From positions 1 to 44,586 of the IMG/VR virus record IMGVR_UViG_3300028920_000121: a DNA stretch of 44,586 bases, one strand, 5' to 3'. Each line of letters starts with the position of its first letter. Position 1 is the first letter of the stretch. The stretch is from a virus. The position numbers were made by a program, and so were the translations under genes. This document shows, piece by piece, positions 1,714 through 12,105 of this stretch. Under the pieces are notes generated by a model that saw only the letters and a program-made list of their open reading frames with translations, made no database searches and was not told the origin of the DNA.

Positions 1714-1962
1714 ATGAGTAACGCAATTATAAGGGAGGCACCAGATATGCCAAAGTTTGAGAAAAGGGTGGAGATAAAACAGGCGGTTAACGGTTTTATC
1801 GTTGAAACCAAACACGAGGTTGAAAGGAAAAATTCCGAGGGTGGTAAATACATGGATACCGAGTATAAAACCGCCGTTGCTGAGAATTTTTCTGAGGTAA
1901 TTAACATTGTTGGGTCTTATTTCGTAGGAAGTAAACTCAAAAAATTTGGGATGGGGCAATAG
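1714..1962 (+). CDS. Hypothetical protein (82 aa)
   Basis: ATG is preceded by AGGGAG. The protein is charged with alternating acidic and basic residues (e.g. KRVEIKQAVNGFIVETKHE) and has a C-terminal VGSYFVGSKLKKFGMG. Its stop overlaps the GTG start of the Cas4-like nuclease by one base, so the two are probably translationally coupled and it may belong with the replication module. No recognised domain. Confidence 0.65.
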   Translation: MSNAIIREAPDMPKFEKRVEIKQAVNGFIVETKHEVERKNSEGGKYMDTEYKTAVAENFSEVINIVGSYFVGSKLKKFGMGQ

Positions 1963-2768
1963 TGGCACTCCGGATTCGTCCCCCCGACCTTGAACCAGTG
2001 AAGTTACCGTCTGGATTAGACCACCTTAGTGCGTCGTCAATAAGTACGTATTTGGTGTGTCCGATGCAATGGTACTTTAGGTATGTCAAAGGGGTAAAAT
2101 CTCCGCCAGCAATCGCTCTTGAATTTGGGAAAAGTGGACATGATGCTCTAAAAATGAATAACATGCACAAACTTGACCAAGGAAAAGATTTGCCATCCAA
2201 GATCGTATGTGATAAATTCAGCGATCAATTGGCGGTTAAAAAGAAAGACATAGAGGATTGGGGGGACGAAAATCCGGACAAAGCTTATGATAAACATCAG
2301 GAGTTGGGCAGGAAATTACTTAATGACTACATGAATGAAGCTGCTGAATTATTTACTCCTGATGAAGAACCGGAAGTGGAAGTAAGAGAGACTATTGCTG
2401 GAGTACCTCTTCTTATGTTTATTGACTTAATATCCGGTAATGAGATATGGGATTATAAGTTTGTAAGCACTAAGAAGAATGATTCCGACGTTAAAAATTC
2501 ATTGCAGATGTGGGTTTATTGTATAGCCAAAAATAAGAGTAAAGCTAATCTTTTATCTTTCTGCAAAAGGACTAAAAATATAGAATCAGCAAGCGCAGAT
2601 ATAACTGACACTGACAAAAACTGGTGCAAGTCCATCATTAGAAAAACAGCGGGGGCGATTAGTGCCGGAGTCTTTTTTCCGCGTAATCCGGATGGCCAGG
2701 AGAAGTGGCGGTGTAGCCAAAGGTTCTGCGGCTACTACCATCTGTGCAGGGGGAAGGGACGATGTTAG
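1962..2768 (+). CDS. Cas4/RecB-like PD-(D/E)XK nuclease with Fe-S cysteines
   Basis: GTG start overlaps the previous stop by one base. The 268-residue protein has the layout of RecB/Cas4-type exonucleases: first cysteine C33 in a helix after SASSISTYLV, His60 in GKSGHDAL, Asp155 in FIDLI, and D164-x-K166 in WDYKF, which form the metal-binding PD-(D/E)XK core. Four cysteines at the end (C251, C256, C262, C268) with C33 could bind a 4Fe-4S cluster. Such enzymes resect or process DNA ends. In a phage replication operon it may serve recombination, packaging intermediates or host DNA breakdown. No Cas genes are near, so a CRISPR role is not suggested. Confidence 0.8.
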   Translation: MALRIRPPDLEPVKLPSGLDHLSASSISTYLVCPMQWYFRYVKGVKSPPAIALEFGKSGHDALKMNNMHKLDQGKDLPSKIVCDKFSDQLAVKKKDIEDWGDENPDKAYDKHQELGRKLLNDYMNEAAELFTPDEEPEVEVRETIAGVPLLMFIDLISGNEIWDYKFVSTKKNDSDVKNSLQMWVYCIAKNKSKANLLSFCKRTKNIESASADITDTDKNWCKSIIRKTAGAISAGVFFPRNPDGQEKWRCSQRFCGYYHLCRGKGRC

Positions 2769-3413: not shown

Positions 3414-3955
3414 AGATACTAGTTAATGAAGTACAAAGAATAAGGCGGGATCTTGTCACATCTTTGCCGTATCCCATACAACAACAAATAGAACACGAAC
3501 TCGAAGACTTCGGGTACGATCTTATTATTCATCATGGTCTAAGGCGACATGAGGTTGGATATCTAACTACCTGCATGAATAATGCCAAGAAAAGGTTCAT
3601 AGGTAATTTAGGTAAGAGATTGCAGAGGTATAAGCATATAGCTGAAGAGTTTTATTATGATCCAGGTTCTGATAGTGACGATGGCAATACAACTCTTGAC
3701 AAGTTATATATGTCTACCGCAGGTCTTAGTCAGCACGATAAGGAATTCGCTTATGTGATGGTCGTTATGATAGTTAGAGGGTCCACGGCCCCGATTAAAG
3801 ACACCGCCGCTGAAATCGGCGTTTCCCGAATGACAGTAAATAAATTCTTAAGGAGATGGAAGGCAGCTTATGCCAAAGAAGTTAACAGACAGGTGCCAGA
3901 AGTGCGATCTCTCAACCACTTGCAAAAGCTCTTGCGTTGGAGGGCGGGGAAGTGA
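3383..3955 (+). CDS. HTH DNA-binding protein (190 aa), possible regulator
   Basis: ATG at 3383 overlaps the preceding gene by 31 bases and has only a weak ribosome site. Residues about 130-165 (IKDTAAEIGVSRMTVNKFLR) form a clear helix-turn-helix with a basic end. The N-terminal 120 residues are helical and charged, with an Asp-rich patch (DPGSDSDDGN). It could be a transcription or replication regulator. A sigma region-4-like origin is conceivable but the promoter-core-binding part is not evident. The 3' end overlaps the start of the polymerase gene by 86 bases. Confidence 0.6.
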   Translation: MPLEQTSKDIKILVNEVQRIRRDLVTSLPYPIQQQIEHELEDFGYDLIIHHGLRRHEVGYLTTCMNNAKKRFIGNLGKRLQRYKHIAEEFYYDPGSDSDDGNTTLDKLYMSTAGLSQHDKEFAYVMVVMIVRGSTAPIKDTAAEIGVSRMTVNKFLRRWKAAYAKEVNRQVPEVRSLNHLQKLLRWRAGK

Positions 3956-6161
3956 GCGACCAAAAGTCATCTTCATCGGGCAAGCTCCAGGTAAAGACGA
4001 GGATGAACGAAATACCTGCTTTGTCGGAGATGCAGGCAAACTTCTTATCGAGACACTTTCAAAAAATGGTATTGGAAACTATCGTCTCACAAATACAGTC
4101 AGATGCTTTCCGCCTAATGATAAAAAACCTCTTAAAAGACAGATACAAGCTTGCCTCCCTTATCTCGAAGCAGAGTTAGAAAGGTATCCCTGTGAAATCA
4201 TTGTTCCACTTGGCGGATTGGCATTGGACGTTTTCTTCCCTGGGGCAAAAGTTACCGAAATGGCTGGTCTTGCGCATAAAGTTGATGGCGGTGTCGTATT
4301 CCCTATTCTTCATCCAAATGCAGTATTACACAGACCACAAAACAGGAGAGACTTCGAGTTACAAGTCAAAGCTCTTGCATCTTATCTATCTGGCGATGTC
4401 AAAGCTCGCAGAATTAAACCCAATTACAAAGATTTAACGAATTCTGCGTTTTTTAGGGGTAATAGGGGTGCAAACATCTTGTGGGCGTACGATTTCGAAA
4501 CCACTGGATTAGATCCTAAAAAAGACGAATTGAGGTGTGTATCTTTTGCTGATAGGCCAAATACAGCACAATACACATCTAAGTGTCATGAAATAAACTG
4601 CCCTGAGTTTTGGACCAGGAACAGGTTTATAGCTCATAATTCTAAATTCGAATCCCGTTTCACAAGGAGCAAGTATGGTGTTACCCCTAATATTGTCGGT
4701 GATACATTTATCGCTCATCATCTTCTTTTTGAGGATGAGTCACACCACCTTGACATCCTTGAGAGAATCTTTACGTCACTTGGAGGATCCAAAGATGAAT
4801 CTAACGATTGGCTTCGACGCAACAATAATGCCTGGGATAAAATACCTGCTGATATACTCATGCGCCGCAACTGTTCTGATAGCGATGCCACTTTGCGTAT
4901 TCATAATATTCTCTATCCTGAAATTTGTAAGCAGGGGCTAAAATACCTATATGAGAGTATAAGTGTGCCAGCGGCAACCGTGGTTGGTAAAATGGAAGAC
5001 TGTGGTATGTACGTTAATCCCAATACACTAAAGAAAATCTATACTGAAGAGGAAGCAAAGGCCGCATCCATCAAGAAGCAAATATGTGAAAGGTGGGGGA
5101 TAGACGATATAAACTTCCGATCTCCTAAACAGATGATTAAATTAGTATACGAAACCATGATGGCAGTTGGTTTATCTGGTAAGGTTGGAATGACGAAATC
5201 CGGTCAGCCTAGTACGGACTCTGATGTATTTGAGATAATGATGTCTAAACCGGAAAATGAGCGAATAAAGGACGATTTGCAATTGATACTTGATTGCAGA
5301 TCTGCACTATATAATTGTACGAAGATAGACGAAATATTTAAATGGAGGAGGGACGATGGAACAGTCTCGGCAGACAACAATGTTGCTTATACTCCTACGG
5401 GTCGTCTTACCTCTTCTCGGCCTAACCTTCAAAATTTACCTGTCGATGGTAGAGTAAAATTAGCTTTTGAATCACGTTGGGAAGGGGGTAATATCTGTGA
5501 AGCAGACTATGGACAACTTGAACTCAGACTTATTGGTTCTGAATCTCGGTGTAGGGATCTTATTGAAGCATATAAAGATGGGCGAGATATTCACCAAGAA
5601 ACAGCTGACAAGTTTAACATGGAACGTGTCGATGCTAAACGAGTTAATTTCGCTTGTGCTTACGGAGTCGGGCCTTCGACCCTATCCAGGGAGCTTAAAG
5701 TCGAATTTGAAGACGCAAGATTCTTCCTTGGAGAAAAGAACAAACAATGGTGGCAAATCAGTACGTGGCGGGAAATACAGCATAATAGGGCACGGGAGCA
5801 AGGGTATGTCACAAATAGATTTGGAAGAAGAAAGAGATTACCGAACATACTTAGCAAGGTAGATAAGGAAAGGTTCGCCGCTGAACGGGTGGCAGGTAAT
5901 TTTCCCATCCAATCATTGGGTGCTGATACCCTGATGCTTGCTATGGTTATAATGGACAGATACATTACGGAAATGAAACTCAAATCATTAATAATAAACC
6001 AAGTACACGATTCTATTATTTTGGACGTGTATCCAGGGGAAGAGGAGGTTATAAAGGAACTGATACCAAATGTGATGGTTAAAGAGATTATGGGATTGCA
6101 TGATTGGTATAAGATACCTCTCGTCGTTGATTGTAAAATCGCTAAAACATGGGGAGGCTAA
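3870..6161 (+). CDS. Uracil-DNA glycosylase - family A DNA polymerase fusion
   Basis: 763 residues, ATG after GAAGG. Residues 1-175 match family 4 (Fe-S) uracil-DNA glycosylase: C9/C12, G37-QAPG, TNTVRC79FPP, C95, and H148-PNA. The usual acidic residue in GEAPG is Gln38. From about residue 203 comes a 3'-5' exonuclease domain (YDFETTGLD with D208/E210; AHNSKFE; later SDSDATLR). The polymerase domain has motif A EADYGQLELR (D546), motif B KRVNFACAYG and motif C QVHDS (H713/D714). It is the likely replicase, working with the SSB, helicase and primase. A PurZ-like enzyme lies downstream, so it may be the DpoZ-type polymerase that copies aminoadenine DNA; this is inference. Confidence 0.9.
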   Translation: MPKKLTDRCQKCDLSTTCKSSCVGGRGSERPKVIFIGQAPGKDEDERNTCFVGDAGKLLIETLSKNGIGNYRLTNTVRCFPPNDKKPLKRQIQACLPYLEAELERYPCEIIVPLGGLALDVFFPGAKVTEMAGLAHKVDGGVVFPILHPNAVLHRPQNRRDFELQVKALASYLSGDVKARRIKPNYKDLTNSAFFRGNRGANILWAYDFETTGLDPKKDELRCVSFADRPNTAQYTSKCHEINCPEFWTRNRFIAHNSKFESRFTRSKYGVTPNIVGDTFIAHHLLFEDESHHLDILERIFTSLGGSKDESNDWLRRNNNAWDKIPADILMRRNCSDSDATLRIHNILYPEICKQGLKYLYESISVPAATVVGKMEDCGMYVNPNTLKKIYTEEEAKAASIKKQICERWGIDDINFRSPKQMIKLVYETMMAVGLSGKVGMTKSGQPSTDSDVFEIMMSKPENERIKDDLQLILDCRSALYNCTKIDEIFKWRRDDGTVSADNNVAYTPTGRLTSSRPNLQNLPVDGRVKLAFESRWEGGNICEADYGQLELRLIGSESRCRDLIEAYKDGRDIHQETADKFNMERVDAKRVNFACAYGVGPSTLSRELKVEFEDARFFLGEKNKQWWQISTWREIQHNRAREQGYVTNRFGRRKRLPNILSKVDKERFAAERVAGNFPIQSLGADTLMLAMVIMDRYITEMKLKSLIINQVHDSIILDVYPGEEEVIKELIPNVMVKEIMGLHDWYKIPLVVDCKIAKTWGG

Positions 6162-8853: not shown

Positions 8854-9825
8854 ATGAAATCAGTTATGTTCGTTACAGGTCGGCAGGGGTGTGGTAAAAC
8901 AACCTTGTGCCGATCTAAGAAGTACCATGTCTTGCCTGGGCAGGTACTCCGTAAGAAATTCGGAGATAAGTTCTTTACTTCCTGCATAAATCCAGCCGCT
9001 CCGCGTGAAACGGAGAAAGAGGTAAGGGAGATTATCACTGACGCAATACAAAAGACCCCAGAAGGTGAAGTTTTGTGGGTTGATGGTTTCCCACGTAATA
9101 CCACTCAGTCTATGTGGATACATGGATTAATAGTTAATGGCATCCATCCGCATATCGTATTTTTAACCTGCTTCGATTCAGTAAGGCGTGAACGCGGTAG
9201 GGTAAGGGATCTGAGTAAACCCGATGCGCAGGAACTATTTGATAAACGGGAGCAAACAGAAACTCAGCGTCTTTACGACGTGGTGATGGAGGTTCATCAC
9301 TATGGACTTACATGGTCAATTCTGGATAATACACCGGAAAATAAAAACCTTGTTGAGCACCCTGATCCTTTTAGTGGGGTTCATCTTGGCACTGATCTTA
9401 GGACCATCTTTAATAACCACATTGACCTCCTTAAAATAGGTGGTACATATGAAGCTATGGCTGATGCAGTAACTGATCCAGGTATGGAAGCGATGGATGA
9501 AACGATACCTGGGTCACCTAAAGCCACTTTCATCCGTAATCTTATTAATCATATCAAAATGGAGTGTAATGAACTTCTTGCCAAATTACCGGATAAATGT
9601 TGGCCAATTCCGGATTTGGCTGTTAAAGATGGCCCATTACGGGTAGAGCTTGTAGACGCATTTCACTTTATGTTATCTGCGGCTATGGTTCTTGGTATGG
9701 ATGCTGATTTCTTCGCTAAGTTATATGAAGAGAAACGCAAGGTAAACGTTAAACGTCAGACAGAGGGTTACGTAAAAACCCGACAAGGAGAGGACGATAC
9801 CAAACTTGGATATCGGAACGTATAA
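8854..9825 (+). CDS. Fused nucleoside monophosphate kinase - all-alpha NTP pyrophosphatase (MazZ candidate)
   Basis: 323 residues, ATG after GCGGAGG. Residues 1-about 185 are an adenylate-kinase-like P-loop domain: Walker A G9RQGCGKT, VDGFPRN (D77-R81) in the NMP-binding region, and an Arg-rich lid-like segment (RRERGRVRD). Residues about 211-310 are an all-alpha NTP pyrophosphatase of the dimeric dUTPase/MazG kind: E237-xx-E240, E265-xx-D268 followed by FHF, then K-xx-VN-xx-RQ-xx-GY. The likely reactions are dNTP to dNMP plus PPi, and phosphorylation of a dNMP. Beside purZ the natural reading is dGTP to dGMP (MazZ-like) and dZMP to dZDP. dUTP hydrolysis plus another kinase substrate is the alternative. 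Confidence 0.8.
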   Translation: MKSVMFVTGRQGCGKTTLCRSKKYHVLPGQVLRKKFGDKFFTSCINPAAPRETEKEVREIITDAIQKTPEGEVLWVDGFPRNTTQSMWIHGLIVNGIHPHIVFLTCFDSVRRERGRVRDLSKPDAQELFDKREQTETQRLYDVVMEVHHYGLTWSILDNTPENKNLVEHPDPFSGVHLGTDLRTIFNNHIDLLKIGGTYEAMADAVTDPGMEAMDETIPGSPKATFIRNLINHIKMECNELLAKLPDKCWPIPDLAVKDGPLRVELVDAFHFMLSAAMVLGMDADFFAKLYEEKRKVNVKRQTEGYVKTRQGEDDTKLGYRNV

Positions 9826-11077
9826 GTTTGGGAGTGACTTTCAGACAGCGATACTTAATTGTATCATAAAAGACCGTAAATTTCTTGAGCAGTACCGCGA
9901 TTCAGTAAGTCCGGAGTATTTCGGGGACGAATGTTATCGCCACGTTTGCTCTGTAATTTTGAGGTTGTTTGATAAATTCAATGTCACTCCATCAAAAGAG
10001 ACAATTGTTGAGGAGATAAAATCTCAGGGGGGAGGAGAAGAAGTTGTTGATACAATTGATTACATTACATCTAAGCAGGTTCCTGACTCGAAGATTATTG
10101 AAAGTAAAGCAAGAACTTTCGCCAGAACTAAAGCGGTTAAGAACGCATTACTCGCTATTCAAAGCCAAATCAATGCGGACCAGACAGAGGATACCTTTAA
10201 GAACGTTGAGAGTCAATTTGCGAAGGCTATCAATGTCGGTACAGGGTACAGCACTGGCTATTCTTATACGGATAATGTGGTTGATAGGTTCCAAAACTAC
10301 GAGGAGAGAGATCCTGCAATACCAACCGGATTTAGGTCGATCGATAACAGGGTCGAAGGGGGACTACATTACAAAGAGTTAGGCATGATAATCGGAATGC
10401 CTGGGGGAGGTAAAACAACTGCCCTTATACACATGGGTAAGAACGCTCTAATGAACGGATTTAATGTCATACACTATAGCCTGGAGATGCGTGAACTTTT
10501 AGTTGCAAGGCGATATGATATGTCTATATCAGAAATGACAAAAGACGAATTGTTACAACTGAAACGTACAGCGGCAAAGCGGATATTTGATAAAGTGAAG
10601 GGTAAGTTACTTATACAAGAATACCCTGCTTGTTCAGCCACTACCGCTACCATAAGGAATCATATATCATTAAAAATACGGGAAGGATTTGTCCCCCATC
10701 TTATCATTGTAGATTACGACGATTTGGTACTGCCGACCCGACAACTTGATGAGTCCCGCACGAATGTGAAACGCCTATATCGTGAGTTGGATGGCATAAC
10801 TAAGGAATTCTCTGTTGCTTTATGGACTGCCAGCCAAACAAATAAGAAGATCTTTGAGATGAGGGATGGAGAAGTAATTGATATGCAACATGCAACTGAA
10901 TCCCTGGAAGCGAAAGGTGGTACGCCCCATTTAATATTATCCATGAATCAGACCTTTAAGGAATATAGGGATGGATTTCTGCGTATGCATATGGTTAAGA
11001 ATCGGGAAGGTGAGCAACAGTTAACAGTAAATTGTGATATACAGCGAAATAAAATGTTAATGAGGGAGATAATTTGA
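9806..11077 (+). CDS. DnaB-like replicative helicase
   Basis: TTG start at 9806 lies inside the end of the kinase gene, with AGGAGAGG about 12 bases upstream; no ATG fits better. The 423-residue protein has a helical N-terminal domain (about 1-150), then a RecA-like motor: Walker A GMPGGGKT (near residue 195), a Walker B-like strand LIIVDYDDLV, and WTASQTNKK as a sensor motif, matching the DnaB/SF4 family. It would unwind the fork and partner with the separate TOPRIM primase at 13256-14101, unlike the fused primase-helicase of T7. Confidence 0.85.
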   Translation: MDIGTYKFGSDFQTAILNCIIKDRKFLEQYRDSVSPEYFGDECYRHVCSVILRLFDKFNVTPSKETIVEEIKSQGGGEEVVDTIDYITSKQVPDSKIIESKARTFARTKAVKNALLAIQSQINADQTEDTFKNVESQFAKAINVGTGYSTGYSYTDNVVDRFQNYEERDPAIPTGFRSIDNRVEGGLHYKELGMIIGMPGGGKTTALIHMGKNALMNGFNVIHYSLEMRELLVARRYDMSISEMTKDELLQLKRTAAKRIFDKVKGKLLIQEYPACSATTATIRNHISLKIREGFVPHLIIVDYDDLVLPTRQLDESRTNVKRLYRELDGITKEFSVALWTASQTNKKIFEMRDGEVIDMQHATESLEAKGGTPHLILSMNQTFKEYRDGFLRMHMVKNREGEQQLTVNCDIQRNKMLMREII

Positions 11078-11610: not shown

Positions 11611-12105
11611 ATGGCAAGGAAAAAGAAAGAATTGGATATACAAGAAAGATACGTCGTAGGGTGGGCAAAAGGTTACCGCCCAACGATCTGCCTTGATTTT
11701 GACGGTGTAATCCATGACCACAAGTATGTAAAGGATTACAGTACATTTTACCAACTTAGAAACAAATCAATACCTTTCGCTAAAGCTGCAATTAAAAAGT
11801 TGCACAAAGTCGGTTTCCGTCTTGTCATCATGTCTGTTCGTGAAGCTGTCCCTATACGTAAGTGGCTTTGTAAAAACAACCTGAATAAATATATACATGA
11901 AGTGAACGGTGATAGGGAGGATACAACATATGACATATTCAACGATAAATTTTGGGATCATAATCCTGACAACACAAGCATAAAACCGATAGCTAATATA
12001 TATATCGACGATAAAGATAGCTTTTGGTGCGGGAGTAAATTCAATTGGGTGATAATGATGAAAAGAATCCAGGACATGTTTCCTATGATGAATTGGAAAG
12101 CTTAG
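11611..12105 (+). CDS. HAD-superfamily phosphatase
   Basis: ATG after GGGATTTAGGG. The 164-residue protein has HAD motif I (ICLDFDGVIHD, about residues 26-36) with the two Asp residues, a motif II region (FRLVIMSVREAVPI, Ser), and the C-terminal acidic pair IYIDDKD of motif IV. Such proteins are 5'-nucleotidases or polynucleotide 3'-phosphatases. The substrate cannot be read from sequence. A role in removing unwanted dNMPs such as dAMP would fit the Z-DNA model but is speculative. Confidence 0.75.
   Translation: MARKKKELDIQERYVVGWAKGYRPTICLDFDGVIHDHKYVKDYSTFYQLRNKSIPFAKAAIKKLHKVGFRLVIMSVREAVPIRKWLCKNNLNKYIHEVNGDREDTTYDIFNDKFWDHNPDNTSIKPIANIYIDDKDSFWCGSKFNWVIMMKRIQDMFPMMNWKA

What the first reader, a model, noticed from the sequence alone, without database searches (positions are those of the whole stretch)
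3870..6161. Uracil-DNA glycosylase fused to a family A DNA polymerase in a purZ phage
The N-terminus has all four Fe-S cysteines of family 4 glycosylases (C9, C12, C79, C95) and the HPNA motif, joined to a complete exonuclease-polymerase. Gln38 replaces the usual Glu of GEAPG, so the activity or base preference may have changed. A glycosylase in the replicase could survey the template for uracil or another unwanted base, or act as a base sensor for Z-DNA.
Basis: partly seen in the sequence, partly recalled or inferred. Interest (0 to 1): 0.75.

Follow-up and report, generated by a model that had tools for sequence, protein, structure and literature searches.

The report
Glycosylase-fused polymerase of purZ phage lineage
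This phage copies its DNA with a polymerase that carries a uracil-removing enzyme domain at its front; such fusions are known from other phages, but this one belongs to a group found beside the gene that makes the unusual base Z, apart from the two described families of Z polymerases, and its front domain is probably weak or inactive as an enzyme.

Summary
One frame, 3870-6161 (763 aa), joins a family-4-like uracil-DNA glycosylase (UDG) domain to a Klenow-like exonuclease-polymerase, 1.3 kb upstream of a PurZ homologue. Such fusions are known (SPO1 gp31 and others). The PurZ link appears new: thirteen other distinct UDG-PolA polymerases lie upstream of purZ on 16 IMG/VR contigs. In trees they fall outside DpoZ-1 and DpoZ-2, a candidate further lineage of Z-phage PolA. 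Support depends on sampling; AU tests are borderline or fail, and one relative inside the group (L274) has no purZ on its contig. The glycosylase keeps four cysteines, Asn75 and His148, but Gln38 replaces a Glu whose E-to-Q change cost Thermus UDG 888-fold in k2/Km. Several sisters have lost more, some the cysteines, while Pfam still recognises the fold. I favour a retained DNA-binding module with weak or no excision; nothing supports a Z sensor. The proofreading site is altered too (ExoII Asp to Glu in all 16 polymerases of the group examined; ExoIII Tyr to Arg in the window). Z in the DNA and dZTP preference are untested.

The parts
3870..6161 (+). UDG-PolA fusion polymerase, 763 aa
   Evidence: single ORF; Pfam; AlphaFold2 model mean pLDDT 91.3, pTM 0.88
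3894..4388 (+). family-4-like uracil-DNA glycosylase domain (residues 9-173): C9, C12, C79, C95, Q38, E44, F51, N75, H148
   Evidence: NCBIfam UDG_fam4 residues 9-173, 100.9 bits, cut-off 125.3; PDB family-4 UDG hits, best E 1.8e-23
3981..3983 (+). Gln38 codon, position of the motif-1 Glu (Thermus E41)
4479..4925 (+). 3'-5' exonuclease region (about residues 204-352); D208, E210, E261 (Asp elsewhere), R333 (Tyr elsewhere), D337
   Evidence: PF01612 weak and below its cut-off, E 0.0065; Klenow-like fold Z about 40 over residues 181-763; site table
5025..6155 (+). family A polymerase domain; helix O R586-K590-R591-F594-Y598; H713-D714
1962..2768 (+). PD-(D/E)XK exonuclease, conserved upstream neighbour
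   Evidence: PF12705 E 3.5e-18; homologues in L036, L037, L038, L040
6474..7445 (+). SSB-like protein (weak call), conserved neighbour
   Evidence: phrog_1192 E 0.0049; homologues in L036, L037, L038, L040
7455..8561 (+). PurZ homologue with Ser in place of the catalytic Asp (GSTGKG)
   Evidence: phrog_1211 E 4e-60; NF038379 213.7 bits, cut-off 300; alignment
8854..9825 (+). nucleotide kinase fused to an all-alpha NTP pyrophosphatase (dUTPase_2-like)
   Evidence: AAA_18 and dUTPase_2; homologues
9806..11077 (+). DnaB-like replicative helicase
   Evidence: phrog_19 E 1.7e-66; conserved order

Best explanation
It is the replicative family A polymerase of a phage with a PurZ homologue, drawn from the SPO1-type UDG-PolA family and not from the two described DpoZ groups; with at least 13 other PurZ-linked polymerases it forms a candidate further lineage of Z-phage PolA. 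Shown: the fusion, the PurZ neighbour, the shared gene order, the tree position within its limits, and the residue changes. Inferred: it is the replicase; the N-terminal UDG fold is kept mainly as a DNA-gripping or docking module at the primer-template, while base excision is weak (window) or gone (several sisters), much as poxvirus D4, a UDG, serves as processivity factor for its polymerase; with PurZ present it copies the genome with dZTP. The altered proofreading site (E261, R333) may change the balance of extension and excision.
For: PurZ-first scans: UDG-PolA upstream of purZ on 16 contigs, 13 distinct polymerases besides the window's; same gene order in L036, L037, L038, L040 (in L037 only the kinase half of the kinase/pyrophosphatase was matched). 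Trees: 19 PurZ-linked polymerases on one side, SH-aLRT 98; 13 of them 99/97 and joined to other UDG-PolA at 96/97, DpoZ-2 and DpoZ-1 apart. The helix-O R-x3-K spacing is uninterrupted, unlike phiVC8-type DpoZ (insertion described in PMC8599892, passages). UDG: E-to-Q at motif 1; 9 of 14 PurZ-linked domains lack at least one of four Cys, E, N, H, yet Pfam UDG is above cut-off in eroded L036, L038, L198, L204, L209. On a tree of 83 fusions the catalytic signature needs 17 changes, the four cysteines 5. D4 precedent: PMC10253040 (passages).
Against: Five of 14 PurZ-linked and 58 of 116 non-PurZ fusions keep all signature residues, so excision may well be useful in many lineages, and the window has lost only the motif-1 Glu (plus N89 to D84). 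The E41Q data come from another enzyme. The cysteines are not so firmly kept in the second non-PurZ set (36 of 47). Tree limits: in a 54-row tree of the polymerase domain the group has support 76 and joining it with DpoZ-2 is not rejected (p 0.28); on exonuclease plus polymerase, joining with DpoZ-2 p 0.049, with DpoZ-1 0.0498, with both 0.103. With 30 of 47 further non-PurZ fusions added the PurZ-linked rows are no longer one side of a branch: L274, without a PurZ match on its 42-kb contig, falls inside, and the group with L274 has support 38. Two other PurZ contigs (L051, L108) have a PolA that sits near E. coli Pol I, so PolA outside the DpoZ groups is not unique to this set. The link to PurZ came from PurZ-first scans. 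The UDG part of the L038 model is only moderately confident (10-residue blocks mostly 43-90; whole protein 87.8). No data on DNA binding by the domain or on Z content.
Confidence: 0.5

Rival explanations
1. The domain is a working uracil-DNA glycosylase that clears uracil from template or new strand at the fork.
For: Four cysteines, N75, E44, F51, H148 kept; intact signature in sisters L207, L208, L214 and, with GEQPG, L211 and L216; 58 of 116 non-PurZ fusions intact.
Against: Gln38 without the compensating Asp next to it: E41Q alone cost 888-fold, E41Q-G42D only 5-fold, and the window has Q38-A39. At least one signature residue lost in 9 of 14 PurZ-linked domains. Excision on single-stranded template would leave an abasic block (general knowledge of base excision repair).
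Confidence: 0.25
2. The domain is a decaying passenger: inherited from an active UDG-PolA ancestor and no longer selected in this group.
For: Erosion of motif 1 and of the Fe-S cysteines in several sisters; L230 has no detectable UDG and L223 only a trace below cut-off.
Against: Length before the exonuclease is 204-318 residues in 15 of 16 (stop-to-stop frames); Pfam still recognises the fold after loss of the active site in L036, L038, L198, L204 and L209; the window keeps all four cysteines.
Confidence: 0.17
3. The pocket has changed base preference and senses or removes an unwanted base such as adenine or hypoxanthine in Z-DNA.
For: Only the position of the change in the base pocket and the presence of PurZ.
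Against: The uracil-pocket residues F51 and N75 are kept; the same E-to-Q occurs in 6 of 116 fusions without PurZ in the flank; no shared pocket change runs through the PurZ-linked set.
Confidence: 0.04

Closest known systems
SPO1-type UDG-PolA phage polymerases (SPO1 gp31, Lysinibacillus LysYB1, Serratia Serbin, Pseudomonas PMBT14, Yersinia P744, ctfzr933)
   Same: Same domain order, UDG at the N-terminus of an exonuclease-polymerase; 23-29% identity for the five aligned, 26% for SPO1 by tblastn
   Different: The five whose neighbours I saw (all but SPO1) lie beside thymidylate-synthase or hydroxymethylase-like genes, with no PurZ annotated in the stretch shown; ExoII Asp kept in 68 of 69 non-PurZ fusions of the first set
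DpoZ of the phiVC8 type (DpoZ-2 in PMC12884076; NCBIfam calls it DpoZ_1)
   Same: PolA in a phage with a PurZ of the same GSTGKG kind
   Different: No UDG, helix-O insertion, DatZ in the same genome in 4 of 4 looked at, separate in trees
DpoZ of the Wayne type (DpoZ-1 in PMC12884076)
   Same: PolA in a Z phage; Arg after the helix-O Lys
   Different: No UDG, PurZ0 partner, separate in trees
Family 4 uracil-DNA glycosylases (Thermus UDG, 1ui0)
   Same: Four cysteines and the equivalents of N80, E47, F54 and H155
   Different: Motif-1 Glu is Gln, N89 is Asp, fused to a polymerase
Poxvirus D4 with A20 (UDG as processivity factor)
   Same: Works alike in my reading: a UDG fold tied to the replicative polymerase (PMC10253040, passages)
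   Different: D4 is a family 1 UNG (recalled), a separate subunit, partner of a family B polymerase (recalled); no homology claim

Membership tests
UDG-PolA fusion polymerases | UDG domain and PolA in one frame | tested here: met
UDG-PolA fusion polymerases | polymerase groups with other UDG-PolA | tested here: met
   96/97 in the 40-row tree; less firm with more rows
Family 4 UDG | four Fe-S cysteines | tested here: met
Family 4 UDG | motif 1 GE(A/G)PG | tested here: not met
   GQAPG
Family 4 UDG | motif 2 HPx and uracil-reading Asn | tested here: met
   H148, N75
Family 4 UDG | NCBIfam UDG_fam4 cut-off 125.3 bits | tested here: not met
   100.9 bits; the intact sister L207 also falls below (108.0), non-PurZ L117 passes with 137
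Family 4 UDG | bound 4Fe-4S cluster and uracil excision | not testable with these tools
   needs protein
UdgX | GEQPG motif and KRRIH loop | tested here: not met
   GQAPG and no such loop in the window; features from the abstract of PMC10359453 as listed
DpoZ (phiVC8 type) | curated DpoZ model (NCBIfam DpoZ_1) | tested here: not met
   87.6 of 500 bits; controls phiVC8 909 and JeffCo 915
DpoZ (phiVC8 type) | insertion in helix O | tested here: not met
   uninterrupted RVDAKRVNF
DpoZ (Wayne type) | curated model (NCBIfam DpoZ_2, which I take to be this type; no Wayne control run) and clade | tested here: not met
   24.6 of 350 bits; separate
DpoZ (either) | preference for dZTP over dATP | not testable with these tools
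   needs enzyme assay
PurZ (neighbour gene) | Ser or Gly for the catalytic Asp | tested here: met
   S19 in GSTGKG; criterion from PMC12884076
PurZ (neighbour gene) | NCBIfam PurZ cut-off 300 bits | tested here: not met
   213.7 bits, still the best model; phiVC8, JeffCo and Bm1 PurZ score 397, 421 and 320, L036 227.9; for L207 a PurA-type model is marginally better, 225.9 against 225.2. I therefore write PurZ homologue.

The most novel reading that the evidence does not exclude
A further, separately evolved Z-selecting replicase: a UDG-PolA whose glycosylase fold has become a built-in DNA grip, whose proofreading site was rebuilt (ExoII Asp to Glu), and which keeps adenine out of the genome without the dATP hydrolase DatZ.
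Probability: 0.25. Interest if true: 0.75.

Novelty: new variant of a known kind. Interest (0 to 1): 0.52.

Why it matters
PMC12884076 (2026; one section and passages seen) describes two groups of DpoZ, taken as two acquisitions of Z preference. A further PurZ-linked polymerase group, from a different PolA family and with a different set of nucleotide-pool genes, would let one ask what is really needed to choose Z over A. The natural series within the group (intact UDG, single substitution, loss of motif 1, loss of cysteines) also makes testable what a glycosylase fold does inside a polymerase. My searches of PMC full text (several lists capped) listed no paper on a UDG-PolA in a PurZ phage; the library lacks most subscription papers.

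Tried and rejected
Z-specific signature in helix O: the residue after K590 is Arg or Thr in all 14 PurZ-linked fusions and in none of the 69 aligned non-PurZ fusions of the first set, but Arg and Thr appear in a second, polymerase-first set without PurZ, and 23 of 64 PurZ-linked polymerases without UDG have Ala. Dropped as a marker. ExoII Glu: 16 of 16 in the PurZ-linked group (L210, L212 and L233, cut by contig ends, not examined), 0 of 69 in the first non-PurZ set, but 5 of 47 non-PurZ fusions of the second set (L271, L274, L285, L302, L340) also have it, so it does not mark PurZ itself.

PurZ tree: does not resolve the UDG-PolA-linked PurZ as one group. Fisher test on cysteine loss (9 of 14 against 66 of 69 with all four, p 0.003) ignores kinship, and the second set has only 36 of 47 with all four; I do not lean on it. 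The rows shown by the fold searches were all polymerase matches (top 50 each), so the UDG fold rests on sequence and on the models' confidence, not on a structural match. PurZ in whole contigs of 25 polymerase-first relatives: 0 of 25, a search without a positive control in the same call. DatZ: 0 of 16 contigs of this group (completeness given for none), 4 of 4 DpoZ-2 references, 0 of 2 PurZ0 references. The human-faecal 'phage' record L006 looks bacterial from its genes and was dropped. Rows dropped before the counts: identical or re-fetched loci, the fragment L195, and SPO1 itself (L022, split by an intron). The tree took 30 of the 47 further non-PurZ fusions.

Full report
What is there. The window is a 44.6-kb virus record. 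One frame at 3870-6161 encodes 763 residues: a UDG domain (PF03167, E 1.9e-24), a 3'-5' exonuclease region and a family A polymerase (PF00476, E 1.1e-70). AlphaFold2 with 40 aligned sequences gives mean pLDDT 91.3, and residues 181-763 match Klenow-type structures at Z about 40, rmsd 2.5-3.0 A over about 550 residues. Downstream lie an SSB-like gene, a PurZ homologue with Ser for the catalytic Asp, a kinase fused to an all-alpha NTP pyrophosphatase, and DnaB.

The fusion alone is known. tblastn finds the UDG part in 69 of 50,697 phage records, among the listed ones SPO1 and its kin, Serbin, PMBT14, P744 and ctfzr933, where it is the front of a DNA polymerase; a few listed records have a free-standing UDG or no annotation. 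A solved chain, 9qhs, named a DNA polymerase I, matches the UDG domain near its N-terminus (residues 14-153 of 1142). The phages whose neighbours I saw with thymidylate-synthase or hydroxymethylase-like genes beside the fusion are ctfzr933, Serbin, LysYB1, PMBT14 and P744. In IMG/VR, 17 of 30 non-PurZ fusion contigs that I chose and 0 of 16 PurZ-linked ones have a PF00303 match.

The PurZ link is the new part. None of 10 reference PurZ records has a UDG. Of the five PurZ relatives in IMG/VR closest to the window's, four have UDG-PolA upstream and the fifth, L039, is a 4-kb fragment. A second scan gave 16 of 55 loci with UDG-PolA upstream of purZ, 13 distinct polymerases besides the window's. 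The order exonuclease, UDG-PolA, SSB-like, PurZ, kinase/pyrophosphatase, DnaB is shared by window, L036, L037 (kinase half only matched), L038 and L040. DatZ, present in 4 of 4 DpoZ-2 references, was found in 0 of 16 contigs of this group, whose completeness is not known.

Kinship. In a 68-row tree the 19 PurZ-linked polymerases of this kind (14 with detected UDG, three cut by contig ends, L223 with a trace and L230 with none) are one side of a branch (98), apart from DpoZ-2 (99) and DpoZ-1 (100); two more PurZ contigs, L051 and L108, have a PolA near E. coli Pol I. With exonuclease and polymerase columns and a full search, 13 of them have 99/97 and join the other UDG-PolA at 96/97. AU tests are weak: joining with DpoZ-2 p 0.28 on the polymerase domain, where the group alone has support 76; on the longer alignment 0.049 with DpoZ-2, 0.0498 with DpoZ-1, 0.103 with both. 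Curated DpoZ models score far below cut-off, with phiVC8 and JeffCo controls well above. A polymerase-first scan then showed limits: 6 of the 78 new loci have PurZ within 8 kb (5 distinct, all re-fetched contigs of this group), 0 of 25 others have a PurZ match on the whole contig, and with 30 of 47 such non-PurZ fusions added the group is no longer one side of a branch. L274, whose exonuclease, UDG-PolA and DnaB match but which shows no SSB, PurZ or kinase match between polymerase and helicase, falls inside. So either L274 lost the purZ cassette or the cassette was gained more than once.

The glycosylase site. Against Thermus UDG the window keeps the residues for E47, F54, N80 and H155, with E41 changed to Q38 and N89 to D84. 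In Thermus UDG E41Q lowers k2/Km 888-fold, E41Q-G42D only 5.3-fold, N89A almost 6-fold in k2, H155S over three orders of magnitude in k2 (PMC5387724, passages and tables). The window has Q38-A39, the unfavourable case. In the 14 PurZ-linked domains, 5 keep all four cysteines, E38, N75 and H148, 9 do not; L036, L198, L201 and L038 have lost motif 1 and one or more cysteines, L040 two cysteines, L204 and L209 the His. Of nine N-terminal regions given to Pfam, UDG is above cut-off in L036, L038, L040, L198, L204, L209 and L211; L223 is below, L230 has none. Outside PurZ phages 39 of 69 and 19 of 47 fusions are intact. On a tree of 83 fusions the catalytic signature (E, N, H) needs 17 changes, the four cysteines 5. 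Q38 itself is not tied to Z: 3 of 14 against 1 of 69 and 5 of 47.

The proofreading site. At the ExoII Asp (E. coli Pol I D424, number recalled) the 16 PurZ-linked polymerases of this group that were aligned have Glu; 68 of 69 non-PurZ fusions of the first set, all 10 DpoZ-2 and both aligned DpoZ-1 have Asp. Five of 47 fusions of the second set without PurZ also have Glu. The window alone of the 16 has Arg for the ExoIII Tyr. Since Z preference of phiVC8 DpoZ was explained by backtracking towards the exonuclease (PMC8599892, abstract and passages), this site is worth testing, though there the A-to-Z ratio did not change in an exonuclease-dead mutant.

How it most likely works. Repeated loss of catalytic residues with the fold kept suggests that the fold is what is selected: a DNA-gripping or docking element, as D4 is for poxviruses (PMC10253040, passages). 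In the window the enzyme is probably weak, not dead. An active surveillance enzyme remains possible (0.25), a passenger domain too (0.17); a Z sensor has nothing in its favour beyond the neighbour gene. That the phage has Z-DNA is inferred from the PurZ homologue; that this polymerase prefers dZTP is inferred and untested.

Noticed in passing
8854-9825: A nucleotide kinase fused to an all-alpha NTP pyrophosphatase (dUTPase_2-like) right after purZ; fused also in L036 and L038, two genes in L040, only the kinase matched in L037. It could pair a MazZ-like dGTP pyrophosphatase with a dNMP kinase.
   Followed up: partly
L117-L194 contigs: 17 of 30 UDG-PolA contigs without PurZ carry a thymidylate-synthase-family match (14 over cut-off), none of 16 PurZ-linked ones: the fusion may favour phages with modified pyrimidines. 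No base rate for phages without the fusion was measured.
   Followed up: partly
L274:7971-11909: Close relative with UDG-PolA directly followed by DnaB; no SSB, purZ or kinase match lies between them, as if the Z cassette were a unit that comes and goes.
   Followed up: partly
L211:2214-4652 and L216:3944-6430: PurZ-linked UDG-PolA with GEQPG in motif 1, the motif of UdgX; no KRRIH in the aligned part.
   Followed up: no
L051 and L108: PurZ contigs whose PolA groups near E. coli Pol I and with neither DpoZ group nor the UDG-PolA: perhaps yet another polymerase in PurZ phages.
   Followed up: no
L010 (Brevundimonas phage StAshley): UDG-PolA beside 7-deazaguanine synthesis genes, another kind of base modification next to this fusion.
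   Followed up: no
11611-12105: HAD-type phosphatase-like gene near the Z module, without a match in the sister loci compared.
   Followed up: no
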